Below the pieces are notes generated by a model. That model was not told the DNA's origin, searched no databases, and saw only the letters and a program-made list of their open reading frames with translations. Below, in pieces: positions 3,367-17,881 of a DNA stretch of 17,881 nucleotides. Origin of the DNA: Candidatus Hydrogenedentota bacterium (lineage in GTDB: Bacteria > Hydrogenedentota > Hydrogenedentia > Hydrogenedentales > JAGMZX01); assembly GCA_029556545.1 (NCBI GenBank), contig JAKQEQ010000178.1:1-17881 (forward strand). Reading direction: 5' to 3'. The position numbers were made by a program, and so were the translations under genes. The stretch's first letter is position 1; each line of letters starts with the position of its first letter.

Positions 3367-4263
3367 ATGCCCGACGCAATCGAACTGCGGACAAAGCAGT
3401 ACAACAAGATCCTGGAGCTGGTCGCACAGCAGACGCGCTCCAAGCTGATCGACAAGGTCGAGACCGGATCCCACACCGGCACCAGCGTTTCCGTGTGCGA
3501 CAAGCTCGACGAGTTCGAAATGGACCCGGTGACCGCCGTTGGCGCGCCGATCATCCATTCCGCGCAGAACTACGAACGTCGCTGGGTTCGCCCCGTGAAC
3601 TTCTACAAAGCCTTCCTGCGGGACACCTTCGTGCAGCTCGAGTCGGAGATCGACCCGCAAGCGAAGCTCATGGCCGCGTCCATCGCCGCCATCAATCGCG
3701 CCCAGGATGACCGGATTATCGCCGCGTTCTTCGGTGACGCGATCACCGGAGCCGACGGCACCACCACGACCACCTGGGCAACGGAAGGCTCCAGCTCGGT
3801 CGTCCCCGTGGAGGAAGGCGGCGGCGGATCGGCCGTCGGGCTGAATGTCGCCAAGCTCAAGGCTGCGCTCGAAATCCTCATGAGCAACGACGTCGACATC
3901 GAGTCGGAGCAGATCTACATCGGCTACAACAGCAAGGCTCACAGCCACCTGCTCGCCGAGGCTCAGATCATCTCTCTCGACTACAACGAAAAGCCCGTGC
4001 TGAAGGACGGCCGAATCATGTCGTTCCTCGGCATGAACTTTGTCCACACCCAGCGCGTCACCAGGGACAGCAACGGCTACTACCGCCTGCCTGTGTGGAC
4101 CAAGAAGGCCATGCACTTCGGAACCTGGAAGGCTCCGCGCGGCGATATCTCGCAGCGCAAGGACATCCAGGGGCTCCCGTGGCAGGTCTACCTGGACGGG
4201 TCGTTCAACGCCACCCGCGTGGACGCCAAGCGCCTCGTGGAAATCAAGATCACCGTGTCCTAA
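3367..4263 (+). CDS. Major capsid protein (HK97-type fold expected)
   Basis: 298 residues forming the icosahedral shell. Position after the scaffold, a very strong ribosome binding site and sequence pattern all agree. There is an N-terminal helix, then a block around residues 58-75 (IIHSAQNYERRWVRPVNF) and a long spine-helix-like segment with IDPQAKLMAASIAAINRAQDDRIIAAFFGDAITG near residues 97-130. A Gly/Ser/Thr-rich loop (TTTTTWATEGSSS, EEGGGGS) comes next, then a C-terminal half with YIGYNSKAHSHLL and FLGMNFVHTQRV. The motif order with RR..P and R..DD.IIAA..G resembles the phage capsid family that includes BPP-1-type podoviruses rather than T7 gp10 itself. The residue length is below T7 gp10A (345). 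Spontaneous cross-linking or cleavage cannot be judged from sequence. Confidence 0.9.
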   Translation: MPDAIELRTKQYNKILELVAQQTRSKLIDKVETGSHTGTSVSVCDKLDEFEMDPVTAVGAPIIHSAQNYERRWVRPVNFYKAFLRDTFVQLESEIDPQAKLMAASIAAINRAQDDRIIAAFFGDAITGADGTTTTTWATEGSSSVVPVEEGGGGSAVGLNVAKLKAALEILMSNDVDIESEQIYIGYNSKAHSHLLAEAQIISLDYNEKPVLKDGRIMSFLGMNFVHTQRVTRDSNGYYRLPVWTKKAMHFGTWKAPRGDISQRKDIQGLPWQVYLDGSFNATRVDAKRLVEIKITVS

Positions 4264-5042: not shown

Positions 5043-5645
5043 ATGGCCTCGCAAGTCGACATCGTGAACCACGCCTTGACCAGGCTCGGCGAAGCTCGGA
5101 TCCAGGACATGGGCGAAGACTCCAAGGCGGCGGAAGAAGCGTCCGCCGTCTGGGACCTCCTGCTCGACGCGGAGCTTTCCGCGAACAACTGGAAATTCGC
5201 CACCAAACGCGCTTCTCTCCCGGCATCCGCAACGCCCCCGGCGTTCGGCTTCGCTCGCGCATTCCCGGTTCCCGCTGATTTCCTCGCGCTGTCCTACGTG
5301 GTCGGGCAGAACGCGCAGGACACTTCCGACTATCGCCCTGACGCGCTGGCGACATTCGAAATCGAGGCGGGGCAGATATTGACGGATCTTCCGGCGCCGT
5401 TGCGGATCGTCTATGTAGCTCGCGTGACCGATCCGAACCTCTGGGACTCTGGATTCCGTAACGCATTCGCGATCAAGATGGCGCAAGCCTTGTGCTACAC
5501 GCTGACCCCGCTTCGCGAGGGCCGCGAACAGCTCCTGTTCCGCGAGTACCAAATGGCCGTCGAGACGGCAAAGCAGAGATCCGCGATCCAGGCACCCCCG
5601 CAGTTCGCCCAGGACTCCACTTGGTTTGCTGAGAGGGAATCGTAA
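5043..5645 (+). CDS. Tail tubular protein A / adaptor, T7 gp11-like
   Basis: 200 residues (T7 gp11 has 196). The protein forms the adaptor ring between portal and nozzle. The N-terminus is typical: SQVDIVNHALTRLGEARI, then helices with AEEASAVWDLLLDAELSANN (residues 31-50) and the family-like NWKFATKRASL. FPVPADFLAL near residues 76-85 and a final helical region ending REYQMAVETAKQRSA also fit. The ribosome binding site GGAGGG at 5032-5037 is five bases before the ATG. The stop codon overlaps the start of the nozzle gene (TAATG at 5643-5647), so the two tail-ring proteins are translated together, matching their joint use in the tail. Confidence 0.9.
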   Translation: MASQVDIVNHALTRLGEARIQDMGEDSKAAEEASAVWDLLLDAELSANNWKFATKRASLPASATPPAFGFARAFPVPADFLALSYVVGQNAQDTSDYRPDALATFEIEAGQILTDLPAPLRIVYVARVTDPNLWDSGFRNAFAIKMAQALCYTLTPLREGREQLLFREYQMAVETAKQRSAIQAPPQFAQDSTWFAERES

Positions 5646-8317
5646 TGGGTGGCACTTCGGCGTCGTACCTCAAGGCGTCATTCAACGCTGGCGAGCTGTC
5701 CCCCCTGTTTGGTGGCCGCGTCGATCACGTCAAGTACGCCCACGGTCTGAAGCGGTCTCAAAACGCGATCCCCGTGGTGCATGGCGCCGTGACTCGGCGA
5801 CCAGGAACCGTGTTGGCAAAGGACAACGGCGCAGGCGTCGACGACTCCAGCGCTTGCCCCGTGCTCGTGCCGCACGACGTATCTGGCGACGAGGCGTGGA
5901 TCTACGTGATCGGCAAGAAGTCGGAGCGCGTGAAGGTCTTCCGCAATCGCGCGGAGGTGCCGGTTTGGTCTCTCAGCTATCCGTTCTACGAGGATGCCCG
6001 GCGAGCTGACGGAACGTCGAAGATCTCGCGCGCGCAGAAGGGCCGCGACCTCTACATGGCCGACGACGGGAGTTCCCCCGCCATCGTCCTGACGAACAAC
6101 GAGTCGACGGTCATTCAGTTCAACCTGTTCAACAACACCGGGCGCCCGCACGGCGTTCTTAGCGACTCCAATCCGACGCCATACGTCCAGAACTACGACA
6201 CCCCGCCGTTCCAGGCTTACGAGCCCGAGAAGAACGTCGTCATCGAGACGGCTGGAAGCGTCGAGATCGGGAGCCTTCCTCTCCTGAACGAACTCATCGC
6301 GCCCACCGGCACGTTCGCTGGCGCGCTGGGTCGGCGGATCGTGTTCAACCCCGACGATTTCGAAATGAAGGACGACGCCGGAAACTTCACATTCAAGGAG
6401 TGGGCGAAAGGGCTCGTCGTTGACCATGGCCAAATCGTGCGGCACCAGGGAAGATGGTACCAAGTGCTCGTCACGGTCAGCCCGTACAAAGCGGCGCTGA
6501 ACACCGAGCCTCTCCATGAGTACGGCGCCATCTACTCGCCCAAAACGGGTGTCGGATACAAGGCGCAGATGGGCTACATCGGGAACGGCCATTTTTCATG
6601 CCAGATCAACTCGAATCCATCGGCGGTCCCTGGTCGCCCTGGGTTTGAGTCGGTTTCCGTCTATTGGGACATGACCAACGCGCCGAAGTTCAAGACTTCG
6701 CGCTGGGCGTGGGCCGCGGTTGCTACCGGCAAGAATCCGGAGCCCGGCGCGGCCTATCCCGATAACCTGGCTCTTTGGCGCTCTCGCCTCGTCCTGTCGT
6801 GCGGCGGTAAACTGTTCTTCTCCGTCGCTGGAAAATTCCGCAGCTTCCGCCAGTACGACGGATCCGGACACATCACGGCCGACCAATGCGTATCCGTGGA
6901 GATCCCTTCCCGCCAGCTCGTGTCGACCGAATGGATGGTCTCGCAAGACTCACTCATCATCGGGTCGAAAGTTGGCGCTTTCGAGGTGCGCGAGGCGTCC
7001 GACGCCGTGTTCGGCCCCGGGAACGTGCGCATCGACCAGGTGACCACGTTCGGCTCGCACAACGTCGAGGCGGTCACGGTCGACAACCATATCCTCTACA
7101 TCGGTAAGGGCGGAAAGCGGCTGCATGCATTGGGGCGAACAAGCGAGGGATGGAGGTCCATCGACCTATCCGCCATCGCCGACCACATCGGAGCCAGCGG
7201 ATTCACGGAAATGGCCTGGCAGAACGAGCCATGGAAAGTCCTCTGGCTGACCACGGGCGCGGGCGACCTCGTTGGCTTGACCTGGAATGCCGACCAGGAT
7301 GTCTTCGGGTGGCATCCTCACCGAACCATCGACGGAGACAAGATTCGAGGCATAGCGTGCATACCGTCTCCATCCGGCCTGATTGATGACCTCTGGCTCT
7401 CGGCGCTCCGGTACAGTAGCGACGACGGCGCTGGCGTGCCGCAGTACCGGCGCACAATCGAATACCTTGCGGATGCTCACCAGGACGGCGGCGACCTGCG
7501 CGAGGCACGGTACAGCGATTCGCTGATCCACTTCGATGGATCCGTGATCGGCGACAACTACGGGCTGAACCTGACGGGCGGCACGCTCTGGGACGAGTCC
7601 GAGCTCCTGACACTGGAAAGCGTTGCCCTCCTGTTTGGCGTGGCGGGATCCGCGTTCACAGCCGACATGGTTGGCGACGTGGTTCGGCTGGTCGAGAGCG
7701 CCCCCGGCCCGATCCCTGGCCCCAAGGATAGCGGCGAGTATATCGACTTGCTCGTGGAATCCTTCGCGTCGGCTACCGAGATCGCAGTCCGGCCCCTGCG
7801 CGCGGTCCCGGAGCGATTCCGCGCCACACCCGCGCAATGCTGGCAGATCCGACGCACAGCGTTCGCGGTCGCACACCTGGATGGGCGGACGGTGGATGTG
7901 CTGGCCGACGGCTGCGCGCATCCGCAAGTCCAGGTGGTCGACGGGGTCGCGACGCTCCAGGAGCACGCATGCAAAGTCACAATCGGAATCCCCGCGTGGG
8001 AACTCCTGGAGACGATGCGGATCGAGCTTGGCGCGGAGACGTCCACCACGATCGGCAAGATCAAGCGAATCTCACATACGACGCTCCGGTTCCTGGAGTC
8101 TGTTGGGTGCTGGATCGGAAACGGGATAGCATCCAGGGAATTCACCTTCCGCAAGCCGTCCGACCGGATGAACGCTCCCGTGCCTGCTGTGACCGGCGAC
8201 GACCGGCGCGACTTCGTGACCGGCAACGGGCCGGACGGAACGATCGTGATCGAGAACCGCCAGCCGCTGCCCATGACGATCATCTCGATCGCTGCTGACC
8301 TGATTTCCGACACGTGA
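5645..8317 (+). CDS. Tail tubular protein B / tail nozzle, T7 gp12-like
   Basis: 890 residues (T7 gp12 has 794). It forms the hexameric nozzle at the tail tip, bound to the adaptor and contacting the fibres. The N-terminus is diagnostic: SFNAGELSPLFGGRVDHVKY (residues 11-30), then KRSQNAIPVVHGAVTRRPGT, as in nozzle proteins of many podoviruses. The middle has repeated beta-strand blocks expected of its propeller-like domain, such as NLALWRSRLVLSCGGKLFFS, DSLIIGSKVGAFEV and VEAVTVDNHILYIGKGGKRL. The C-terminal 250 residues are also beta-rich. No enzymatic motif is visible. A ribosome binding site AGAGGGA at 5632-5638 precedes the start by six bases, and the start overlaps the adaptor stop by one base. 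It is followed after ten bases by the first ejection-protein gene. Confidence 0.92.
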   Translation: MGGTSASYLKASFNAGELSPLFGGRVDHVKYAHGLKRSQNAIPVVHGAVTRRPGTVLAKDNGAGVDDSSACPVLVPHDVSGDEAWIYVIGKKSERVKVFRNRAEVPVWSLSYPFYEDARRADGTSKISRAQKGRDLYMADDGSSPAIVLTNNESTVIQFNLFNNTGRPHGVLSDSNPTPYVQNYDTPPFQAYEPEKNVVIETAGSVEIGSLPLLNELIAPTGTFAGALGRRIVFNPDDFEMKDDAGNFTFKEWAKGLVVDHGQIVRHQGRWYQVLVTVSPYKAALNTEPLHEYGAIYSPKTGVGYKAQMGYIGNGHFSCQINSNPSAVPGRPGFESVSVYWDMTNAPKFKTSRWAWAAVATGKNPEPGAAYPDNLALWRSRLVLSCGGKLFFSVAGKFRSFRQYDGSGHITADQCVSVEIPSRQLVSTEWMVSQDSLIIGSKVGAFEVREASDAVFGPGNVRIDQVTTFGSHNVEAVTVDNHILYIGKGGKRLHALGRTSEGWRSIDLSAIADHIGASGFTEMAWQNEPWKVLWLTTGAGDLVGLTWNADQDVFGWHPHRTIDGDKIRGIACIPSPSGLIDDLWLSALRYSSDDGAGVPQYRRTIEYLADAHQDGGDLREARYSDSLIHFDGSVIGDNYGLNLTGGTLWDESELLTLESVALLFGVAGSAFTADMVGDVVRLVESAPGPIPGPKDSGEYIDLLVESFASATEIAVRPLRAVPERFRATPAQCWQIRRTAFAVAHLDGRTVDVLADGCAHPQVQVVDGVATLQEHACKVTIGIPAWELLETMRIELGAETSTTIGKIKRISHTTLRFLESVGCWIGNGIASREFTFRKPSDRMNAPVPAVTGDDRRDFVTGNGPDGTIVIENRQPLPMTIISIAADLISDT

Positions 8318-8327
8318 GGTGCGATAG

Positions 8328-8777
8328 ATGGACCCTCTGACAATCCTGGCAGGAATCAAGCTCGGATCCTCGATCCTCTCGACCGTGGGCGGGCTCTCGC
8401 AGGGCTCCGAGGACGCGGCAGCGCAGCGCCTGGCGGCCGAACGTGCGCAAGCGAACGCCCGCGCAGCAATCCGCAAGGGAGAGTCCGACGTCGGGATGGT
8501 CCGGCGCCAGGGCGGGCGAGTGATGGGCGCCCAGCGGGCCGCGATCGCCCAATCTGGACTAGGTGCAGGCGGGACCAATGCCGCGCTGGTGGCCGAGTCT
8601 GCGCGCAACATGGAAGCGGACGTAGCCAACACGCGGATGGAAGCGGCGCTCCGGGCGGCGGATGCAGCCGACCAAGCGCGCCAGTTCAGACAGCAAGCGT
8701 CGAACACCAAAAAAGCCTCGTACATCGGCGCGGCATCGAACATCCTTTCCACCGCGTCCCGTTTTTACGGAGGCTGA
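8328..8777 (+). CDS. Internal virion (ejection) protein, T7 gp14-like
   Basis: 149 residues, shorter than T7 gp14 (196). In T7, gp14 sits at the base of the internal core, is ejected first and forms the pore in the outer membrane. Here the N-terminus is short and hydrophobic (LTILAGIKLGSSILSTVGGL), followed by a long Ala/Arg/Gln-rich helix with few aromatics. GGRVMGAQRAAIAQSGL and GAGGTNAALVAESARNMEAD lie in the middle, and the C-terminus again is moderately hydrophobic (IGAASNILSTASRFYGG). This arrangement is typical of gp14-like proteins. GAGGTG at 8316-8321 is the ribosome binding site. Position between nozzle and the large ejection proteins supports the call strongly. Outer-membrane action presumes a Gram-negative host, which the window does not prove. 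Confidence 0.85.
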   Translation: MDPLTILAGIKLGSSILSTVGGLSQGSEDAAAQRLAAERAQANARAAIRKGESDVGMVRRQGGRVMGAQRAAIAQSGLGAGGTNAALVAESARNMEADVANTRMEAALRAADAADQARQFRQQASNTKKASYIGAASNILSTASRFYGG

Positions 8778-8780
8778 CCG

Positions 8781-11684
8781 ATGCCCAAGATTCCGACCTA
8801 CGAGCAACATACGTCCACCCCGTCCGGAGAGCGCCGCGTCGCTGTTGGTCCGACCGACCAATCCGGCGCGATGCTGACCGGCCTTGCCAATGCCGTCACC
8901 GATGCGGCCAGCGTGGCGGGTGCCACGATCCAGCGCAAGCGCGATGCGCAGGCGGCGGCGCTGGACGCCTACGACCGCCAGCAGGATGCGCTGAGGCGCG
9001 TGGAGGCGAAGGAGTGGGCGGACAACGCGGCAACGGATGCCCTGCTACGCAAGCACGAGCGGATGGCCGAGATGAAGCGTCAAATCCCAGCCGGCGCCGA
9101 CTTCCTGGAAGAGTGGCGCAAGGAAGAGGCCGCGATCGACGCCGAGGTGAAGGGTTCTGCGCCGGCGGGAAATCCGTACTTCGGGAACGCCCTGGATTCG
9201 CAACTTTCGAACCAGCGCCAGTCCTTCCAGCTCGCGGCGCTCCAGTACCGCGAAGCGTCGCGCGCGGTCAAGACGGAATTCGACTTCGAGAAGAAGATCG
9301 ACACGAATCGGAAGATCCTTCAAAAGCTCCCGGCCCTTGATGCCGACGCCAAAGCCTTCGAGCTGGTCCGCGAGATGGAGGCGGACGCAGGGCTTGCTCT
9401 CCTTCCGCCGAACCAGGCCGAAGCGCTGGCCGAGAAGAAACGCCAAGACCTGGCCGAAACCGTCTTCGAGCAACATTTGCAGAATCCCGAGGATGCGCAA
9501 AATCTGCTCAACGCCATCGATGGCGCTGGCAGCATTCACTTTGTGCGCAAGGCTGGAACCAACCGCGCCAACGGCAAACCGATCTCCGGCGGGAAGTGGG
9601 ATTCAAAGCTCCGGGCGGCGGCGGAAAAGTACGACCTGGACCCGTCCATTCTGATCGCGACCATGATGCAGGAAAGCACGGGGGATGAACGTGCCGTCTC
9701 GCCAAAGGGCGCGCAAGGTCTACTTCAACTCATGCCAGGAACCGCCCGCGACCTCGGCGTGGACCCGTCCGACCCAGACCAGAACATCGACGGCGGCGCC
9801 CGCTACCTCGCGCAGCAGATCGAGCGTTTCGGATCGGTCGCGAAGGGCTTGGCGGCCTATAACGCTGGACCTGGAAATCTTTCGAGCGCGATCCGCAAGG
9901 CGGAAGCCGCAGGCCGCCCGAATGATTGGCGCGAGTTCCTTCCAAAGCCGAAAGAAACCGTTCCATACGTCGCCGAGATCATGAATCGCGCGGGAATCAA
10001 GGGCGACGGATCCGACCAGTACGAAGCGATCCAGGAAGAGGGAATCAAGATCCAGGCGCTGGAGTACGCCACCCCGGAGCAGATCGCCAAGTTCCGCAAC
10101 CAGGCGGAAAGCTACGTCGCGCAGGCGGCACGAGCCCGCACCCAGCAGAACCGCGACGAGCTGCACGCGCGGGAAGCGTCGACCAAGACCGCAGCGGCCA
10201 CCGGTGCGGAGATCAAAGATCCCGTCACCATCGACGACTACCTGGCCGCAGGTTACGACCCGCAGGCCGCAGTGGTGCGCATGGCGTTGCTTCGTCCGTA
10301 CCAGGAAATGGCGCCGTTCGTTCGCGAGATGGCGAACATGCCAAAGGCACAGCGTGACGCTGAAGTCGCCAAGCGCGACCCGGCCGGGACTGGAGCGGCG
10401 GGATACGACTTCGACGCCAAGAGCGATGCCTACAAGCTCGCGAAGGCCGCAAACGAGAGCATCGACAAGCAGATCGCGGCCGATCCAGCCGGGTACGCCG
10501 TTCGGCATAATCCGTCAGTGAAGCGCGCCAAGGAAACTCTGGATATCGTGCTCCAGACGCCAGGCGTTCCGGCTGTCAACATCCGGGCATCCGTCGACGC
10601 CTATGTCGCCGAGGTGTCTTCCTTCCAGACGGCGCAAGGCGTCGAAACCCCCGCGATCCTCCCGCAGAACGAGGCAGACGCGATCAAGTCCAGCTGGTAC
10701 GGCCAGGCGGACGGCCCGCTCCGTGCAGCCGAAACGATGTCTCAGCTCGCCACAGTCTACGGCCAGCACTACGGCGGCGTCTTGCGCCAGCTTGCGAAGG
10801 ACCTCCCATCTGAAGCGCTCTGGGTTGGCCAGCTCGCCAGCGATCCCGCGACACTTGGCGTCCGGCAACAGCTCGCCGCAGCGTCGAAGACGTGGCCCAC
10901 GCTGACGGATATCCCGGCGCGGAAGGGGATTGAAAACGCAGTGGACGCAGAGTTCGCGGTCTACCAGAATTCGCTCCGGTCCACAAGCGCCGACGGCGGC
11001 GCCAGGGCGTGGGCGCAGCTCCGAGACGGCGCAGTCAAGCTGGCGGCTCTCAAAGCTGCGCAGTCCGGAGCGACGCCCGAGGTGGCCGCGCGCCATGCTT
11101 TCGCGGAGTTGGTGGGAAATCATGTGGAGTTCTTCAAGGCGGATCGCGCGATCTCCGCATTCGGTGGCGAGGCAGTCTACAACAGCGACGTAATCCGCGT
11201 TCCGAAGACGTGGCGCGGAAAGGCTCTCAATCAGGAGCCCGAAGACGTCGTGGACGGCGCCAAAAAATGGCTGCGCCAAGTCCTGCCGGCAATGGAGTTC
11301 CAAGCAGACCGGTCCCAAGCCGTTTTCCGCGCCGACATCAAGGAACGGGGCGGGTGGGTGACCTCTCCCGAAGATGATGGCCTCGTGCTCATGCTTGGAT
11401 CCGCGCCGGTACGGACCAAGGACGGAAAGCTGGTCAAGATCTCGTGGGCCGAGGCGGCGGATCTCGCGGAGATGCCGGAGGAGGACGGCCCCGGCTTCGT
11501 GTCGCGAGCTTTGGAAGCTGCGTCCAATTGGTTCATCGCGCCGCCGACGCCAGACGCGAAGCCCGTGCCAGAGCCGATCCCGCGGCAGCGCAATCAGACC
11601 GGGCGAATCCCGGAAGGTATAGATTTGAGGAAGCCAATGCAGCCGCTTCCAGGAGCGCCGCGAGACCGCCAGTTCAGGAGATAG
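8781..11684 (+). CDS. Ejection protein with lytic transglycosylase (SLT) domain
   Basis: 967 residues in the gp15 position. Residues 31-240 are charged, helical and coiled-coil-like. Residues about 272-405 form a soluble lytic transglycosylase domain (SLT, PF01464 type): catalytic Glu298 in MMQESTG, GLLQLMPGTA at 313-322, NIDGGARYL at 335-343 and AYNAGPG at 359-365. These are the family's core motifs and look intact. Residues 405-967 are mostly helical, with a Pro/Arg-rich end. The enzyme would cut glycan strands locally so DNA can cross the cell wall. In T7 the transglycosylase is at the N-terminus of gp16 and gp15 has none, so here the enzyme sits in the middle of the preceding protein. The ribosome binding site CGGAGG lies eight bases before the ATG; the gene starts three bases after the gp14-like stop. 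Confidence 0.9.
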   Translation: MPKIPTYEQHTSTPSGERRVAVGPTDQSGAMLTGLANAVTDAASVAGATIQRKRDAQAAALDAYDRQQDALRRVEAKEWADNAATDALLRKHERMAEMKRQIPAGADFLEEWRKEEAAIDAEVKGSAPAGNPYFGNALDSQLSNQRQSFQLAALQYREASRAVKTEFDFEKKIDTNRKILQKLPALDADAKAFELVREMEADAGLALLPPNQAEALAEKKRQDLAETVFEQHLQNPEDAQNLLNAIDGAGSIHFVRKAGTNRANGKPISGGKWDSKLRAAAEKYDLDPSILIATMMQESTGDERAVSPKGAQGLLQLMPGTARDLGVDPSDPDQNIDGGARYLAQQIERFGSVAKGLAAYNAGPGNLSSAIRKAEAAGRPNDWREFLPKPKETVPYVAEIMNRAGIKGDGSDQYEAIQEEGIKIQALEYATPEQIAKFRNQAESYVAQAARARTQQNRDELHAREASTKTAAATGAEIKDPVTIDDYLAAGYDPQAAVVRMALLRPYQEMAPFVREMANMPKAQRDAEVAKRDPAGTGAAGYDFDAKSDAYKLAKAANESIDKQIAADPAGYAVRHNPSVKRAKETLDIVLQTPGVPAVNIRASVDAYVAEVSSFQTAQGVETPAILPQNEADAIKSSWYGQADGPLRAAETMSQLATVYGQHYGGVLRQLAKDLPSEALWVGQLASDPATLGVRQQLAAASKTWPTLTDIPARKGIENAVDAEFAVYQNSLRSTSADGGARAWAQLRDGAVKLAALKAAQSGATPEVAARHAFAELVGNHVEFFKADRAISAFGGEAVYNSDVIRVPKTWRGKALNQEPEDVVDGAKKWLRQVLPAMEFQADRSQAVFRADIKERGGWVTSPEDDGLVLMLGSAPVRTKDGKLVKISWAEAADLAEMPEEDGPGFVSRALEAASNWFIAPPTPDAKPVPEPIPRQRNQTGRIPEGIDLRKPMQPLPGAPRDRQFRR

Positions 11685-11685
11685 G

Positions 11686-14600
11686 ATGCAAACCTTCGTC
11701 GACGCCTCAAGCTACGATTCGCCCGATCCCCAGCGCCTTCCTGCGGGATTCGGGCGCGGCCTTGTTGCGTCGTTCGAAGAGACCGCGATCTCGGGCCCGG
11801 TGTTCGGCGGCTACTTGCTCAACGAGGTGCGCAAGGCTGGCAAAACCGGGCGCCTGCTCTCCCAGGAAGAGGCGAAGGCGTACATCGCCGCCGAGGGCTT
11901 CGCGGACATTGACGTTCCGGAAACCGGGCTGACCGACGCTCAAGCGGAAATGCTCGTCACCTTGCGCCGCGACCGGCAGGAAGGCGAAGACGTGATCTCC
12001 CGCGCGTCCGGCGTCGCAAACTTCGTCGGCGGCGTCGGAGGCGGATTTGCTGATCCGGCGATGGGCCTCCTGAACTTCGTCCCGATCGTTGGCGCTTCCC
12101 GGGAGGCCGCGATCATCGCCCGCGCATCTGCACGTTCTGGAGCGCTTGGCCGTCTCGGCGCGCGCGCGGCTGTTGGTGCCGTTGAAGGCGCAGTGGGCGG
12201 TGTGATGTCCGCGCCGTTGACTGGCCTCGTCAAAGAGGGCTTTGGCGACGACTATACCATGGCGGACACGCTGGCCGAAATCGGCACGAGCGCGATTTTT
12301 GGTGGTGCGATCCAGGGCGGAACCGGAGCGCTTGCAGATGCCGCCGCCAAGCTGGCAGACCGATCTTCTCGCGGATGGATCAAGAAGCATTTCGGTACCG
12401 AATCGCTGGAGTGGAAGAAGATCGAAGATCAGGACAAGGCGCTCCGCGAAGCATTTGCACCCGAGAAGGCGGCAGAGATCGACGATGAGGTAGTGCGAGC
12501 TGCCGATGACGCCGAGGCCGTGGTGCGGCTCGAGGAACCTGCAGCGACGCCGGAGCGCGTTTCCCAGGCTGTCCGCGATGCGTTAGGGGATCGCCCGATC
12601 CTTCGCGCTGCCGACGAGGGCGCGGATCCGTTCTCGGTCTCCGTGGCCCGTGCGATCCAGGCTTCCCAGGAAGCCGTCGCCGCCGATCCAGCCGGGATCA
12701 TGCCGCTGGTGAAGGTGTTCGACGCCATCGCCAAGGATCGCCAGAAGGGTCTTTCCGTCGCCGAGAGCATCGAATCCGGCGCGCTGTCGAAGATGGGGCC
12801 GACCCAGGTTGAAGCCGCTCGCGTGGCGATGGAGATTCATGACCAGCCGGAGCGGATGCAGCGTTTTGTCTCGTCGTTCGTGGAGGCGCGCAAGAACTGG
12901 AACAGCAAGATCGCGTTTGAAGAGGCGATCGCGAAGGTGTCCACGCTGGACGGCCCGGCCGAGAAGTTCCGCGCGGCGCCCGAAGCGACCCGCCAGAACG
13001 CCGAGGCGGTCGCTTCGTTCCAGGAAGAGGCAGGGACCAGAATCAACCCCGAGCGCGTGATCGACGCCGATGTCAGAGCGGAAGGCGGCGGCGCTCCGGA
13101 GGTCGCCAAGGAGATCCAGAAGGCAGGAGACCCGGAATACCGCTACGACGCCCGCGACCTCAAGGATGCGTCCGAGAAGGCGCGCAAGGCGGAGGCCGAG
13201 CCGGTCCGCGACGACTACGACGCCATGGCCGACGAGCAGGAAGAGGTCCTGCGCAAGCTCCTGGAGGAAAGCGGGGTAGAAGCGAAGTTCGCCGAGGGGA
13301 AAGAGCTGCCCGAATCCATCGACATCGACGGCGTACAGCGCAGCACGAAGGATTCCACGGGGCGCAGGCTTGGGCGGACAGAGGAGGAGGTCCGCAACTT
13401 CTGGAATTGGTTCGGTGACTCGAAGGTGGTGGATGAGGCGGGGAATCCGCTGGTAGTTTACCATGGGAGCCCCACGCCGGAGGGTATTACGGAATTCTCC
13501 CCGGGCGGCAAGCAGGGTTCTCGACTGAGCGGGGACGCTTACGGCGTGGCCAGTTACTTCACGTCCTCCCCAGGTGAGGCCTCAATCTATGCTCGGGATG
13601 ATGGGGCGGTTTTCCCGGTATATGTCCGGGGCGAGATACTAGACGTTGACTCCAAACTTTCCGAAGTGCAGTCGGACAGAGTTTCACAGCTTGCAAGCGA
13701 GGTGATGCTGCCCTCTGACAAAGCTAGATTCGCAATTGGTCGAGAGGTTCGGAGTTTTGACGACGTCCGAGACGCTCGTGACTTCTTTGACGCCCAGCGT
13801 AAGAACTGGGAGGCTTTTGGCGACGGCATGGATCGGGCCAAACCAGAGGCTCGCGCGGATGGTGGGGAATACCAAGTCGAGTTCACAAATTTCGACGCGG
13901 ATGTGAGGATCGAAACCGGCGAAGACGCGTTCACCCTGTTCAAAGCAATCGGCTTTGACAATATCGCCGCAGCGGGCTTTGACGGGTTGATGTTCGCTCG
14001 GGACGGCGGGGCGAAATGGGTCGTTATGCAGCGCCCGGAGACAAACGTCAAATCCGCCATCGGCAATCGCGGCACATTCGACCCAACGAACCCCGACATC
14101 CGCATGGCCGAGGGCGCGACGGAATCTGATCTCCGCATCCAGGACGCCGCCGCCGCAATCGAAGAGCGATTCGGCGCCGGAACGATCGAGACGGCGCGCA
14201 AGGCCGGATTCGAGATCGTTGCCGCCAAGGATCTCCCTGAACAGGCTCAGCGCGCCAACGTGGTGGGCGTGACCGTCGGGAAGAAGTCCTACCTCGCCGC
14301 CGACCGCATGAACCGCCAGGACGCCGCAGCGTACTTCCTGCATGAGTACGGCGTCCACGTCGGCATGGAAGGCATGCTGGGCGCCAAGGGCTTCGCGGAC
14401 ATCCAAGCGAAGGTCGGCGACCTGCTTTCGCGCGACCCGGATCTACAAGCCGTTGTCATGTCACTGGTTCCGACGACGACAAAATCCGCCCACATCGCCG
14501 AAGAACGCCTGGCCTACCTCGTGCAGCACATGGAAGGCGTCCTGTCTGGGCGTGAGGACTGGCCCAAGGGGGCCGCGTGGCTGCGCGTGGCCGATCCCGA

Positions 14601-17520
14601 AACCCGCCGCGCCATCGTGGAGCTGGTGCGCGAGATCGTCGCAAAGGTCAAAGCCTACCTCTACTCGGAATTTCCGGCCTTGCGCGGGATGGAACTTTCC
14701 GCCGAGGACATCCACGCCATCGCGGTGCGGTCGCTCCAGCACGGTGCCGAGATGGACCGGCGCGCGCGGTTCGCCGAGTCGGGCGGCACCCCAGAGCTGG
14801 ACGAGATCAAGGCGGCAAAAGAACTATCCAAGCGCGTGCGCGACGTGTACCGCAAGGCTTACGACAAGGTTGCGTCGGTGTCTGACCAGATGGACCGCGA
14901 GCAACTCACGGCGGCGGCTATGTCGGCCGGCCTGGACGAAGCTGAGGCGCGCGGACTGGTAGACCGGTTCCGCAAATTCCAGGGAGACGCCAAGGCCGCA
15001 GCCGATGCCCACGAGTCCGAAGTGGCGCTCAACCGGTACCGCGCCACCCTGAACGCCGTTCGCCTCCACGAAGGCATGAGGATCATCCTCGGGTTCAAGG
15101 GGCGCGAAGCTGAAGGCGCGCTGGCGCTTGACGGCGGATCAGAGCACAACCGGTTCGGCGCGCGTGCGAGCGCGGACTACTGGCGCCGCTCCTGGAAAGA
15201 CATCCTGCAGAACGGCGCGGCCCAGGAGATGCACAAGGCTGGACTCTGGAAGCTCGCGCGGCGCAAGGAGTTCTCGCGCAACATCATCAATGCGCTCTAT
15301 GACGTGCAGACGAACACGACGGAGAACCTCGGGAAGACCTACACCAAGGATCATCTGGCCGTCGCGAAGATCATGGAGAAGTACCAGCGCATCGGCTTGA
15401 TGGAGATGAAGCGTCACGGAGTCGACATCGGCCAGCTCGAAGGCCGTATGCTCCACCAGGATCATGACGCATGGGCCTTGCGCAACTTCGCGAACAACGC
15501 GCGCACTGGCGCAACCCGTTCAGCGATTCGAGGCTTGTTCCCGTCTAAGAAGCGGATCAACATCGGCGACCCCAGGCATCGTGAGGCGTGGATCGACTTC
15601 GTGATGCCTCTGCTCGAGGAAAAGACCTACGACGGGCGCGTGGTGGACCGCGAATACCTTGCGGGCGTCTACGACCTCCTTGCGGGTTTCAAGGAGCCAT
15701 CGCAAGACGCCGACCTCCTGGGTGGGCGCTACGGGCCCGGAGGTGTGAAGGGCGAAGCCGAACGGCGCTCAGGCATGGCGCGCAACTTGAAATTCAAGGG
15801 GCCGGACGAGTGGGCGGCGTACCAACAGCGGTGCGGAAACCCCGACTTCATGTCGAACTTCATGGGCGAACTGGACGGAATGGCGCGCTCCATCGGAATG
15901 ATGCGGGTCTACGGGCCGGGTGGCGAGTTCACGCGCCAGATGATGCACCAGGCCGTCGGGCACCAACTGAGCGGCGTATCGGCGCTGAAGTGGCAGAACT
16001 CCAGGAAGGACCGCGAAACGTCGCTGGCCGTGCTGAACGGCTCCGTGAATATCCCGGCGTCCGAGGTGATCGCGAACGTGGCCACGAACACGCGAAACAT
16101 CTTCAAGGCTTCCATTCTGGGCGGGGCGATCCTCTCGCAGACCGGTGACTTCGTAAACGTCGGGAAGGCCCGCGCCCTGCGGTTCAATCGCGGCATTGGC
16201 GGGGTGTACGGGGAGACGCTTTCGCACGTGCGCGACTTCATGCGGACGATCAAGCCTGGAGCCGCGCAGAAGGCCGTCATTGAGGCGTTCGGCGCGGACA
16301 TCGACGCAACGATCGGCGGGCTCTTGCGCGAGGTCGAGAGCGGCGACTCCAGGGGCTTCACGTCGCGTCTGGTCGAAAAGGTCTACCAGTACCAGGGCGC
16401 AACCTGGCTCAATCGCCACAACCGGCAGGCGGCGGCGCTGGGGATGTCGAATTGGCTCGGGAGCGAATCGCGGCGCGGCTGGAATGAGATCGAGCCGACG
16501 ACGCGCGAATTCCTGCAGGAGCACCGATTCACAGAAGCCGACTGGGAGTTGATCCGCCGCGGCGAGATGATCGCGGACGACGGGCGAAGCTACCTCACCC
16601 CGGAAAGCGTCGCGGCGCTGTCGGATGAGGCGATCGCCGACCATCTGCGCGCCACCGGAAGCCAGGCGACAGAGCGCCACGTTGCGGCCTGGCGCGTGGA
16701 CACGGCCAACCATATTTCGGCGATGATGACGGACTACGTTTCCCAGGCGCTGAAAGAGCCGTCGATCCGCTCGCGCATGGTCACCACGGGCGGAACTCAG
16801 GCGGGGACATGGTCGGGCGAACTGGTCCGCTCCATGTGGGATGTGAAGTCCTTCATGGTCTCGCAGGTCCAAAATGAGATCCAGACGGAGCGATTCGGGC
16901 GGTCAAGCGACCCTCGGGCGCGGGTCAAGGCGGGGTCGGCATCGCAATATCTCGCCATCGCCAACTACATGGCCGCCATGACGATGGCGGGGTATGTGTC
17001 CTACGTCCTCAAGGGGTGGGCATCCGGCGTAAGTCGTCGCGGACTCCTGGACCAGAACAACGAAGACGACCGGATCTTGTGGTTCGACCTCCCGATCTTC
17101 GACGACCGCGTTCTCTTCGCGTCGATGGCCCAGGGCGGCGCGCTGGGCATCTACGGCGACTTCCTGTTTTCCGATAATGACCGTTTCGGCGGCGGATTCC
17201 TGCAGACGCTTTCTGGCCCGTCCATCGGCAAACTGGAGGACATCTACAAGATTTGGCGCGCCTGGAAGACTGCTGGCGACGACACCGACCCGGAGAAGGC
17301 GGAACGGGAGCGCGGGGCGTTGGCGAACCAAATGGTGCGAATGCTCAAGGGATCCATTCCCGGCTCGAACCTGTGGTACTCGCGCCAGATCTTGGACCGG
17401 TACATCTGGTGGAACATCCAAGAGGCCATCAATCCCGCTGCGCTGGACCGGCTGGAGAAGTCGGCGGCGAAGCGGGGGGATGATTACGTGTTCACCCGCC
17501 CCACAGACGCGCGGAACTGA
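11686..17520 (+). CDS. Giant gp16-like ejection/polyvalent protein with ADP-ribosyltransferase-like and zincin-like domains
   Basis: 1944 residues (T7 gp16 has 1318). Residues 1-105 contain a gp16-type lead (LSQEEAKAYI, then GLTDAQAEMLVTLRRD). Residues 106-226 are Gly/Ala-rich and hydrophobic, possibly membrane-inserting. Residues 226-560 are charged helices. Residues 567-806 are an ADP-ribosyltransferase-like domain (FWNWFGDSKVV, VVYHGS, YFTSSPGEASIYA, GFDGLMF, then GNRGTFDPTNPDIR). Residues 861-950 are zincin-like with HEYGVH at 886-891. Residues 1030-1944 are helical and end with QGGALGIYGDFLF at 1816-1828 and a tail common to large podovirus ejection proteins. AGGAG at 11676-11680 is the ribosome binding site, one base separating it from the previous stop. 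It is probably ejected into the host. Enzyme activities are inferred from motifs. The frame is uninterrupted. Confidence 0.85.
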   Translation: MQTFVDASSYDSPDPQRLPAGFGRGLVASFEETAISGPVFGGYLLNEVRKAGKTGRLLSQEEAKAYIAAEGFADIDVPETGLTDAQAEMLVTLRRDRQEGEDVISRASGVANFVGGVGGGFADPAMGLLNFVPIVGASREAAIIARASARSGALGRLGARAAVGAVEGAVGGVMSAPLTGLVKEGFGDDYTMADTLAEIGTSAIFGGAIQGGTGALADAAAKLADRSSRGWIKKHFGTESLEWKKIEDQDKALREAFAPEKAAEIDDEVVRAADDAEAVVRLEEPAATPERVSQAVRDALGDRPILRAADEGADPFSVSVARAIQASQEAVAADPAGIMPLVKVFDAIAKDRQKGLSVAESIESGALSKMGPTQVEAARVAMEIHDQPERMQRFVSSFVEARKNWNSKIAFEEAIAKVSTLDGPAEKFRAAPEATRQNAEAVASFQEEAGTRINPERVIDADVRAEGGGAPEVAKEIQKAGDPEYRYDARDLKDASEKARKAEAEPVRDDYDAMADEQEEVLRKLLEESGVEAKFAEGKELPESIDIDGVQRSTKDSTGRRLGRTEEEVRNFWNWFGDSKVVDEAGNPLVVYHGSPTPEGITEFSPGGKQGSRLSGDAYGVASYFTSSPGEASIYARDDGAVFPVYVRGEILDVDSKLSEVQSDRVSQLASEVMLPSDKARFAIGREVRSFDDVRDARDFFDAQRKNWEAFGDGMDRAKPEARADGGEYQVEFTNFDADVRIETGEDAFTLFKAIGFDNIAAAGFDGLMFARDGGAKWVVMQRPETNVKSAIGNRGTFDPTNPDIRMAEGATESDLRIQDAAAAIEERFGAGTIETARKAGFEIVAAKDLPEQAQRANVVGVTVGKKSYLAADRMNRQDAAAYFLHEYGVHVGMEGMLGAKGFADIQAKVGDLLSRDPDLQAVVMSLVPTTTKSAHIAEERLAYLVQHMEGVLSGREDWPKGAAWLRVADPETRRAIVELVREIVAKVKAYLYSEFPALRGMELSAEDIHAIAVRSLQHGAEMDRRARFAESGGTPELDEIKAAKELSKRVRDVYRKAYDKVASVSDQMDREQLTAAAMSAGLDEAEARGLVDRFRKFQGDAKAAADAHESEVALNRYRATLNAVRLHEGMRIILGFKGREAEGALALDGGSEHNRFGARASADYWRRSWKDILQNGAAQEMHKAGLWKLARRKEFSRNIINALYDVQTNTTENLGKTYTKDHLAVAKIMEKYQRIGLMEMKRHGVDIGQLEGRMLHQDHDAWALRNFANNARTGATRSAIRGLFPSKKRINIGDPRHREAWIDFVMPLLEEKTYDGRVVDREYLAGVYDLLAGFKEPSQDADLLGGRYGPGGVKGEAERRSGMARNLKFKGPDEWAAYQQRCGNPDFMSNFMGELDGMARSIGMMRVYGPGGEFTRQMMHQAVGHQLSGVSALKWQNSRKDRETSLAVLNGSVNIPASEVIANVATNTRNIFKASILGGAILSQTGDFVNVGKARALRFNRGIGGVYGETLSHVRDFMRTIKPGAAQKAVIEAFGADIDATIGGLLREVESGDSRGFTSRLVEKVYQYQGATWLNRHNRQAAALGMSNWLGSESRRGWNEIEPTTREFLQEHRFTEADWELIRRGEMIADDGRSYLTPESVAALSDEAIADHLRATGSQATERHVAAWRVDTANHISAMMTDYVSQALKEPSIRSRMVTTGGTQAGTWSGELVRSMWDVKSFMVSQVQNEIQTERFGRSSDPRARVKAGSASQYLAIANYMAAMTMAGYVSYVLKGWASGVSRRGLLDQNNEDDRILWFDLPIFDDRVLFASMAQGGALGIYGDFLFSDNDRFGGGFLQTLSGPSIGKLEDIYKIWRAWKTAGDDTDPEKAERERGALANQMVRMLKGSIPGSNLWYSRQILDRYIWWNIQEAINPAALDRLEKSAAKRGDDYVFTRPTDARN
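13384..14103 (+). other. ADP-ribosyltransferase-like domain (polyvalent-protein type) within the giant ejection protein
   Basis: Residues 567-806. The opening FWNWFGDSKVVDEAGNPLVV with YHGS (His593) and the later YFT (Tyr624) match the His and Tyr positions of ADP-ribosyltransferases seen in phage polyvalent proteins. The closing KSAIGNRGTFDPTNPDIR is the linker that usually follows such domains. Third-position GC falls to 110 of 180 codons across 13441-13980, against 15-19 per 20 in blocks sampled outside it. At the usual third catalytic position, near GGAKWVVM (775-782), I see Lys777 and not an obvious Glu, so activity is uncertain. Confidence 0.7.
14266..14535 (+). other. Zincin-like metallopeptidase segment within the giant ejection protein
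   Basis: Residues about 861-950. HEYGVH at 886-891 follows a helix (NRQDAAAYFL) and is followed by VGMEGMLG. Glu939 and Glu940 in AEERLAYLV could supply the third ligand. The spacing is HExxxH and not the classic HExxH; similar HExGVH motifs occur, to my knowledge, in metallopeptidase-like domains of polyvalent phage proteins. A role in processing the giant protein or a host target is possible but unproven. Confidence 0.5.
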
Positions 17521-17544
17521 GTAGATTTTTCGAAGGGGTGAACC

Positions 17545-17881
17545 ATGACCGTCGCGACGCAAGAAACTCTCATCGAATACGCCGGGGATGCATCTTCGAC
17601 GGTCTTTGCCCTGGACTTCCCGTTCGTTGACGCGACGTGCTTGAAGGCCGTCAAGATCGACGGCGCCGGAATCTCTACCCCTGTGACCATCACGGACACC
17701 AACGGCGGGAGCCAGCGGACGGGGTGGGATGTCACAATCTCCGAGCCTGTCGGTATAGGCTACACCCTGCGGATCTACCGGGACACCCCGATGATCCAGC
17801 CGAAGGTCTACACCGAGAACGACCCTTTCCCTGGGCGCTCGCACGAGATTGGCCTGGACCGCCTCACGATGATCGTCCAGG
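17545..17881 (+). CDS. Tail fibre, T7 gp17-like N-terminal anchor (partial, cut by window end)
   Basis: The first 112 residues of a longer protein. It begins MTVATQETLIEYAGDASSTV, then FALDFPFVDATCLKAVKI, and later GYTLRIYRDTP and HEIGLDRLTMIVQ. This is the pattern of the T7 tail fibre N-terminal domain (PF03906), which docks trimeric fibres onto the short tail: a Y..D..S..F..DFPF opening, a G..L.I.R.TP strand and a final L.RL.M helix. A GAAGGGG ribosome binding site at 17532-17538 ends six bases before the ATG. It lies 24 bases after the giant ejection protein, the same order as gp16-gp17 in T7. The receptor-binding part lies beyond the window, so host specificity cannot be assessed. Confidence 0.9.
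   Translation, partial: MTVATQETLIEYAGDASSTVFALDFPFVDATCLKAVKIDGAGISTPVTITDTNGGSQRTGWDVTISEPVGIGYTLRIYRDTPMIQPKVYTENDPFPGRSHEIGLDRLTMIVQ

What the first reader, a model, noticed from the sequence alone, without database searches (positions are those of the whole stretch)
13384..14103. ADP-ribosyltransferase-like domain embedded in a podovirus ejection protein: a possible injected effector
The 1944-residue protein has gp16-type ends, is encoded in the gp16 position, and carries an ADP-ribosyltransferase-like domain at residues 567-806 (FWNWFGDSKVV, YHGS, YFT, NRGTFDPTNPDIR). Known: gp16-type proteins enter the host with the DNA, T4 injects the ADP-ribosyltransferase Alt, and polyvalent proteins (Aravind and co-workers) are thought to be delivered with mobile DNA. 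Inference: this phage delivers an enzyme as part of its DNA-ejection machine, joining effector delivery and genome entry in one polypeptide.
Basis: partly seen in the sequence, partly recalled or inferred. Interest (0 to 1): 0.8.

Follow-up and report, generated by a model that had tools for sequence, protein, structure and literature searches.

The report
Enzyme cargo in phage ejection protein
A short-tailed phage carries a predicted ADP-ribosylating enzyme, together with a predicted protease, inside the protein that helps push its DNA into the host; relatives carry other enzymes in the same slot, which suggests that this part of the DNA-entry machine doubles as an effector carrier.

Summary
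Residues 567-806 of the 1944-aa product (window 13384-14103) match Pfam ART-PolyVal above its cut-off (E 6.8e-13), keep the H/Y/D residues of that family, and give an ART-like AlphaFold model (pTM 0.66; best matches PARPs, an anti-CRISPR structure, diphtheria toxin). The protein is truly gp16-like: with family profiles, its first ~235 residues match T7 gp16 219-406 (E 3e-8) and its last ~850 match T7 gp16 564-1147 (E 2e-7); scrambled controls give E >= 0.13. Relatives show that this is a variable cargo slot: usually two separate genes without recognised cargo, but also ART-PolyVal, exotoxin-type ART, ddrB-ParB, RadC or PBECR5 RNase. Virion ARTs and 'polyvalent proteins' are known, and a solved cyanophage A4 pre-ejectosome chain aligns to this ART model. 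New here is the identification of a T7-gp16-type ejection protein as a polyvalent effector carrier. Virion presence, ejection, activity and target are inferred, not shown.

The parts
11686..17520 (+). ORF of 1944 aa: gp16-type ejection protein with polyvalent cargo
   Evidence: AGGAG-type ribosome site 5' of ATG
11686..12390 (+). N-module (residues 1-235), homologous to the T7 gp16 region 219-406 (TMH I)
   Evidence: phrog_3003 E 1.2e-31; profile-profile with T7 gp16 prob 95, E 3.3e-8, controls E>=0.13
12391..13383 (+). linker, residues 236-566, acidic, no recognised domain
   Evidence: no Pfam match above chance; net charge -25
13384..14103 (+). ART-PolyVal domain (residues 567-806), with an insert around residues 652-755 relative to the family
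   Evidence: Pfam E 6.8e-13; model and fold search
13462..13464 (+). H593, first triad residue (67 of 70 relatives have H)
13555..13590 (+). Y624 (aromatic or His in 68 of 70) and Y635 (Y/F in 65 of 70): candidates for the triad Tyr
13981..13983 (+). D766, last triad residue (68 of 70)
14116..14976 (+). zincin-like metallopeptidase region (residues 811-1097)
   Evidence: conserved in L033, L058, L065, L113 and 34 viral loci; dN/dS 0.09 against L113
14341..14358 (+). HEYGVH (H886-H891), HEXXXH zinc motif
   Evidence: HEXXXH class described in PMC5512222
14500..14505 (+). E939/E940, candidate third zinc ligand (E(E)xLxYL)
   Evidence: E invariant in 5
14977..17517 (+). C-module (residues 1098-1944), homologous to T7 gp16 564-1147 and epsilon15 gp17
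   Evidence: phrog_684 virion structural protein E 1.8e-114; T7 E 2.1e-7; epsilon15 gp17 E 1e-139
8781..11684 (+). preceding ejection-operon protein (967 aa) carrying the transglycosylase (SLT, residues 278-377)
   Evidence: Pfam SLT E 1.5e-24; phrog_992/phrog_342
8328..8777 (+). gp14-like internal virion protein
   Evidence: phrog_418 E 2.4e-21; weak Pfam T7_gp14

Best explanation
The gene encodes the large ejection protein of a podovirus, a homologue of T7 gp16 in which the N-terminal membrane-region module and the C-terminal cytoplasmic module have been joined around a cargo: an ART-PolyVal ADP-ribosyltransferase and a zincin-like HEXXXH peptidase. Made late and packed in the head core, it would be ejected ahead of the DNA, insert in the inner membrane through the N-module, and expose the cargo on the cytoplasmic side at the DNA-entry hub. 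There the ART would transfer ADP-ribose from NAD+ to a host target (transcription or defence proteins being the likeliest) in the first moments of infection; the peptidase may release the ART or process the protein. Shown here: the domains, the homologies, the order, the recurrence and exchange of cargo at this point. Inferred: packaging, ejection, topology (transferred from T7), catalysis, target, role of the peptidase.
For: ART: Pfam over cut-off, triad residues kept, model with ART-fold matches: Foldseek 6kyf prob 0.99, VIA Z 7.6 PARP1, 7.5 6kyf, 7.1 diphtheria toxin, viral ART-PolyVal models E 1.5e-13. gp16: both modules match T7 gp16 in order; PHROG T7-gp16 family phrog_342 also hits the transglycosylase of the preceding protein and both modules in relatives. 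Placement: published T7 model puts TMH I at 243-410 and 411-1118 in the cytoplasm (PMC8954989); cargo falls between T7 positions ~406 and ~564. Recurrence: ART-PolyVal between the two modules in nine other metagenomic viral loci (one of them, L169, is cut off before the C-module), on the N-module protein of Vibrio phage 1.182.O, and on the gene before the C-module gene in two prophage-like loci. Peptidase region under purifying selection.
Against: No virion proteomics or ejection data for this protein. T7 topology is itself a composite model. NAD+ use not tested; T7-like ejection needs unfolding through a narrow channel, which an ART and a peptidase would have to survive. Most recognised ART-PolyVal relatives sit in other polyvalent proteins (none of the 80 nearest has the gp16 modules), so gp16 is only one carrier. 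The contig is a fragment; its host is unknown.
Confidence: 0.7

Rival explanations
1. The peptidase cuts the protein before packaging (as proposed for P1 DdrB), so the ART never becomes part of the ejected gp16 chain: it acts in the producing cell, or is packaged as a separate internal protein like T4 Alt.
For: HEXXXH peptidase lies directly between ART and C-module; P1 DdrB is cut before packaging and carries a similar domain (PMC5512222). In several relatives the ART-bearing protein and the C-module are separate genes anyway.
Against: N4 vRNAP with a peptidase domain is packaged uncut (PMC5512222). In relatives with the ART on the other side of the peptidase (L174, L175, L180, L185, L187) a single cut would not free it in the same way.
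Confidence: 0.15
2. The ART is injected but is a counter-defence enzyme that switches off a host defence complex, rather than a T4-Alt-like modifier of RNA polymerase.
For: Best Foldseek match of the model is an anti-CRISPR protein structure, 6kyf (prob 0.99; from memory this is AcrIF11, an ART-type anti-CRISPR). Other cargo in the same slot (ddrB-ParB, RadC, PBECR5) belongs to families discussed as early counter-measures in PMC5512222.
Against: Fold likeness says nothing of target; PARPs and diphtheria toxin score as high.
Confidence: 0.35
3. The ART domain is a catalytically dead structural spacer in the ejection protein.
For: Foldseek match to PDB is modest (best E 1.5e-3) and the window's domain has a long insert; one relative (L169) has R at the His position.
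Against: His and Asp are kept in 67-68 of 70 relatives and all triad candidates in the window; the slot is usually without recognised cargo, so no spacer is needed; unrelated enzymes replace it.
Confidence: 0.1
4. The fusion is an assembly chimaera of two genes and an unrelated ART gene.
For: Metagenomic contig of 17.9 kb with composition unlike most other contigs of its bin sampled.
Against: A separate assembly (L113, 96.9% identical DNA) reads through from the ART tail over the peptidase to the C-module in one frame; the same order occurs in L172 and others.
Confidence: 0.02

Closest known systems
Polyvalent proteins with ART-PolyVal (Iyer, Burroughs, Aravind 2017, PMC5512222), incl. Roseovarius Plymouth podovirus 1 vRNAP-ART
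   Same: ART of the H-Y-D type in a very large multidomain protein among late genes, in a family of proteins where zincin-like peptidases are the commonest partner; predicted to be injected
   Different: There the named podoviral carrier is an N4-type virion RNA polymerase; here it is a T7-gp16-type ejection protein. The text of that paper does not mention gp16 or internal virion proteins
T7 gp16 / epsilon15 gp17 ejection proteins
   Same: Both modules match T7 gp16 in order; C-module matches epsilon15 gp17; operon order the same
   Different: Transglycosylase on the previous protein; ART and peptidase inserted between the modules; 1944 aa against 1318
Cyanophage A4 pre-ejectosome chain 9k3a_B (A-4L ORF27, 1717 aa)
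   Same: Solved pre-ejectosome chain of which residues within 951-1601 align to our ART model (Z 7.3, 135 residues), with a YHGT...GTYFSKSSQAA motif at 1424-1462
   Different: No detectable gp16 N- or C-module; annotated 'tail protein'. The paper (Hou et al. 2025 PNAS) is not held, so what its authors said of this domain is unknown to me
T4 Alt
   Same: ART packaged and injected with DNA (per PMC5512222)
   Different: R-S-E clade, free head protein, not part of an ejection conduit
Vibrio phage 1.182.O gp16 ('coil containing protein')
   Same: phrog_3003 N-module followed by ART-PolyVal E 3e-17, next to a phrog_684 gene
   Different: Two separate genes, no peptidase recognised between

Membership tests
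ART-PolyVal / Tox-ART-HYD2 | Profile match over curated cut-off | tested here: met
   50 bits against 31.2
ART-PolyVal / Tox-ART-HYD2 | H, Y, D active site | tested here: met
   H593, Y624/Y635, D766; which Tyr is catalytic not settled
ART-PolyVal / Tox-ART-HYD2 | ART fold | tested here: met
   Model pTM 0.66; viral ART-PolyVal models E 1.5e-13; PARP/6kyf/diphtheria toxin Z 7.1-7.6, Foldseek 6kyf E 1.5e-3: consistent but not high-scoring
ART-PolyVal / Tox-ART-HYD2 | NAD-dependent ADP-ribosylation | not testable with these tools
   needs enzyme assay
T7-gp16-type ejection protein | N-terminal membrane-region module (T7 219-406) | tested here: met
   hhalign prob 95, E 3.3e-8; controls E>=0.13
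T7-gp16-type ejection protein | C-terminal cytoplasmic module (T7 564-1147) | tested here: met
   hhalign prob 93.6, E 2.1e-7
T7-gp16-type ejection protein | gene order gp14, gp15, gp16 before the tail fibre | tested here: met
T7-gp16-type ejection protein | N-terminal transglycosylase on the same chain (not a universal feature: absent in P22-like phages) | tested here: not met
   SLT is on the preceding protein; PMC8954989 calls this feature phage-specific. For this reason I say homologue of gp16, gp16-type, not an orthologue of full length
T7-gp16-type ejection protein | presence in virion and ejection | not testable with these tools
   only homologues annotated as virion structural or internal virion proteins
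Zincin-like MPTase of polyvalent proteins, HEXXXH class | HEXXXH plus downstream Glu in a following helix | tested here: inconclusive
T4 Alt family | R-S-E active site | tested here: not met
   H-Y-D residues instead
Polyvalent proteins | several effector domains in one large protein of a mobile element near virion genes | tested here: met
   ART + peptidase-like region inside a late-gene protein; relatives with ddrB-ParB, PBECR5, RadC

The most novel reading that the evidence does not exclude
T7-gp16-type ejection proteins have a standard cargo slot between the membrane module and the cytoplasmic DNA-entry module, into which phages repeatedly swap effector enzymes (two kinds of ART, ddrB-ParB, RadC, PBECR5 RNase), often with a built-in peptidase that may release them: the DNA-entry conduit is also a protein-delivery device, and cargo is placed by topology at the site where the genome enters.
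Probability: 0.55. Interest if true: 0.78.

Novelty: new variant of a known kind. Interest (0 to 1): 0.6.

Why it matters
Polyvalent proteins were predicted to be injected, but how they are carried in podoviruses other than N4-type phages was unclear. Finding them built into gp16 gives a carrier, a predicted topology and a testable order of events. It turns the middle of gp16-like proteins into a place to look for early counter-defence enzymes, and cultured relatives (Vibrio phage 1.182.O; for the ART alone, Caulobacter phage Jess A) make it testable.

Tried and rejected
First ART model from 12 sequences was poor (pLDDT 51) and Foldseek found nothing usable; replaced by a 70-sequence model. 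Single-sequence hhalign of T7 gp16 was too weak (prob under 4); only family profiles on both sides gave significance. PDB profile searches with the C- and N-modules found no true match; the ART profile gave only weak diphtheria toxin/PARP12 hits (E 0.01-0.09). The search for related loci with the C-module as a single protein, and with the 12-row ART alignment, gave nothing. Relatives in the bin's phylum: none of 67 other genomes has the C-module, so host assignment by relatives failed. A tree put the window outside the clade of fused proteins, but on a very long branch; a test does not reject joining them (p-AU 0.568), so one or two fusion events cannot be told apart. T4 Alt membership rejected on active site. 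The A4 ejectosome paper and the epsilon15 papers are not held.

Full report
WHAT WAS CLAIMED AND WHAT IS THERE. The finding concerns residues 567-806 of a 1944-residue protein. The open frame is 11686-17520 on the + strand and the residues map exactly to 13384-14103; the quoted motifs are at 572-578, 592-595, 624-626 and 794-806. Pfam ART-PolyVal (PF18760) matches residues 583-798 with E 6.8e-13, well over its curated cut-off. In the whole 6.1-Mb assembly it is the only such match, and 14 control genomes have none.

SURROUNDINGS. The window is a late-gene block of a podovirus: portal (368-1984), Bbp19-like (1984-2271), major capsid (3367-4263), tail proteins (5043-5645, 5645-8317), gp14-like internal virion protein (8328-8777), a 967-aa protein with a transglycosylase (8781-11684), the 1944-aa protein, and the start of a tail fibre (17545-). 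This is the order gp14, gp15, gp16, fibre of T7 and gp14-gp17 of epsilon15.

IS IT gp16? PHROGs gives phrog_3003 for residues 6-222 and phrog_684 'virion structural protein' for 1098-1940. In cultured relatives (Pseudomonas Flu_PA14/Ab31 type, Vibrio 1.182.O, Pelagibacter HTVC035P) these two families are two adjacent genes; SPN1S has the same two-gene layout with a different family as the first gene. The PHROG family of T7 gp16 (phrog_342) touches both in relatives: positions 225-429 hit the phrog_3003-type protein and 1055-1221 the phrog_684 protein, while its first part hits the transglycosylase of the window's preceding protein. I then compared profiles: 98 N-modules against seven T7-gp16 homologues gave prob 95, E 3.3e-8, covering T7 219-406; 136 C-modules gave prob 93.6, E 2.1e-7, covering T7 564-1147. 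Reversed and eight column-shuffled controls gave E 0.13 or worse. Epsilon15 gp17 matches the C-module with E 1e-139.

WHERE THE CARGO LIES. The review of ejection proteins (PMC8954989) divides T7 gp16 into transglycosylase plus tape (1-228), TMH I (243-410), a cytoplasmic part (411-1118) and TMH II (1119-1290), the whole being a composite model. The N-module ends at T7 ~406 and the C-module match begins at ~564, so the cargo sits just after TMH I, on the side modelled as host cytoplasm. This topology is transferred from T7, not measured here; the N-module is Gly/Ala-rich but only one 19-residue stretch passes my hydropathy threshold.

THE ART. In an alignment of 70 ART domains, H593 is H in 67, D766 is D in 68, K789 is K in 68; position 624 is aromatic or His in 68 and position 635 Tyr/Phe in 65. 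This fits the H-Y-D active site described for these domains (PMC5512222). The model from that alignment has mean pLDDT 72 and pTM 0.66, with the core at 84-92 and a poor insert. Foldseek against the PDB: best 6kyf, an anti-CRISPR, prob 0.99 (E 1.5e-3); among the following weak rows are the MbcT toxin, PARP4, rifampin ADP-ribosyltransferase and Tpt1. VIA-align: PARP1 Z 7.6, 6kyf 7.5, 9k3a_B 7.3, diphtheria toxin 7.1; Z under 8 is not strong alone, but nearly every row shown is an ART. Predicted viral structures: ART-PolyVal proteins from E 1.5e-13.

THE PEPTIDASE THAT WAS MISSED. Residues 811-1097 hold HEYGVHVGMEGMLG and a conserved E(E)xLxYL, shared with L033, L058, L065 and L113. A scan with this region found 34 viral loci. 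HEXXXH zincin-like peptidases of polyvalent proteins are described in PMC5512222. Compared with the 96.9%-identical copy L113 the region has dN/dS 0.09 and the C-module 0.21: the frame is under selection as protein.

A CARGO SLOT. Among 80 viral and 48 genomic relatives found with the C-module, most have a two-gene form, with a separate middle protein of about 400-600 residues; of the middle proteins of that size that I scanned, only that of Vibrio 1.182.O has a Pfam match over cut-off, the ART. Others carry, on the protein before the C-module or in a fused 1.8-2.9-kaa protein: ddrB-ParB (L033, L077, L122, L131, L141, L174, L177, L178, L181, L182, L185, L186), RadC (L034, L035, L041, L051, L055), exotoxin-type ART (L044, L049, L093), PBECR5 RNase (L185), ART-PolyVal (Vibrio 1.182.O, L150, and L155 just at the cut-off). 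The peptidase scan gave proteins with the N-module, ART-PolyVal and peptidase, and the C-module where the contig reaches that far, in L168-L170, L172, L174, L175, L180, L185 and L187; the ART lies before or after the peptidase, and L170 has two. L172 (1988 aa) has the window's exact order. L168/L169 and L174/L180 are near-copies, so this is about seven distinct sequences. On a tree of 100 C-modules, ART-PolyVal needs at least 9 changes, and the fused proteins other than the window and L118 form one clade (SH-aLRT 100); the window, on a long branch, can join that clade (p-AU 0.568). The cargo has thus probably been gained or lost repeatedly.

PRECEDENT. Virion ARTs are known (T4 Alt), polyvalent proteins were predicted to be injected, and an N4-type virion polymerase with ART is on record (PMC5512222; PMC9503650, which finds ARTs in only about 3% of podoviruses). 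That 2017 text never mentions gp16 or internal virion proteins, and my searches of the held library found no paper joining the two. The strongest precedent came out of the fold search: chain B of the cyanophage A4 pre-ejectosome, identical to A-4L ORF27 'tail protein', with a YHGT...GTYFSKSSQAA motif at 1424-1462. It lacks detectable gp16 modules. Its paper (Hou et al. 2025) is cited in PMC12810830 but not held, so I cannot say whether its authors described an ART.

HOW IT MOST LIKELY WORKS. Late synthesis, packing with the core, ejection before DNA, membrane insertion by the N-module, exposure of ART and peptidase in the cytoplasm by the DNA-entry hub, ADP-ribosylation of a host protein at once; the peptidase may free the ART. 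Steps up to 'gp16 homologue with intact-looking ART at that point' are shown; all later steps are inference.

HOST. The contig lies in a bin of a phylum of which 68 genomes are held; none of the 67 others has the C-module. Tetranucleotide correlation of the window with other contigs of the bin is 0.34-0.53, against 0.30-0.81 among those contigs themselves, and a near-copy occurs in a MAG labelled Verrucomicrobia. Nearly all genomic relatives are Pseudomonadota. The contig may be a misbinned free phage; I do not name a host.

Noticed in passing
L295 (Anabaena phage A-4L, ORF27, 20116-25269 -): Solved pre-ejectosome chain 9k3a_B, annotated 'tail protein', has an ART-like motif at residues 1424-1462 and, by eye, a ParB-like stretch just before it (about 1330-1400).
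   Followed up: partly
L044:6304-9798, L093:5757-9335, L049:3-968: Middle ejection proteins with a different, exotoxin-type ART (PF03496, E 1e-11 to 5e-31); L044 also weakly HipA-like: a second ART family in the same slot.
   Followed up: partly
L131:7289-9484, L141:6598-9666: Caulobacter/Brevundimonas loci where transglycosylase and ddrB-ParB lie on one protein before the C-module gene, closer to the T7 arrangement.
   Followed up: no
L024:10213-16332 (Caulobacter phage Jess A gp039, 'lysis protein'): LPD22 + ART-PolyVal + HEXXH motif in a 2039-aa protein at the gp16 position, but with an unrelated C-terminal family (phrog_9880).
   Followed up: partly
L026:7154-8854 (Vibrio phage 1.182.O): Record calls it 'coil containing protein'; it is an N-module plus ART-PolyVal (E 3e-17). 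A cultured phage for tests.
   Followed up: partly
L113 (MWDT01000261.1) against window 14062-17881: 96.9% identical DNA in MAG Verrucomicrobia ADurb.Bin122: the same phage type in two bins, pointing to a free or misbinned phage.
   Followed up: partly
L133, L135, L152 upstream proteins (1129-1317 aa): Large middle ejection proteins in Rhizobiales/Sphingomonad prophage-like loci with no Pfam match at all: unknown cargo.
   Followed up: no
L170:5277-10988: One fused ejection protein with two ART-PolyVal domains flanking the peptidase.
   Followed up: no
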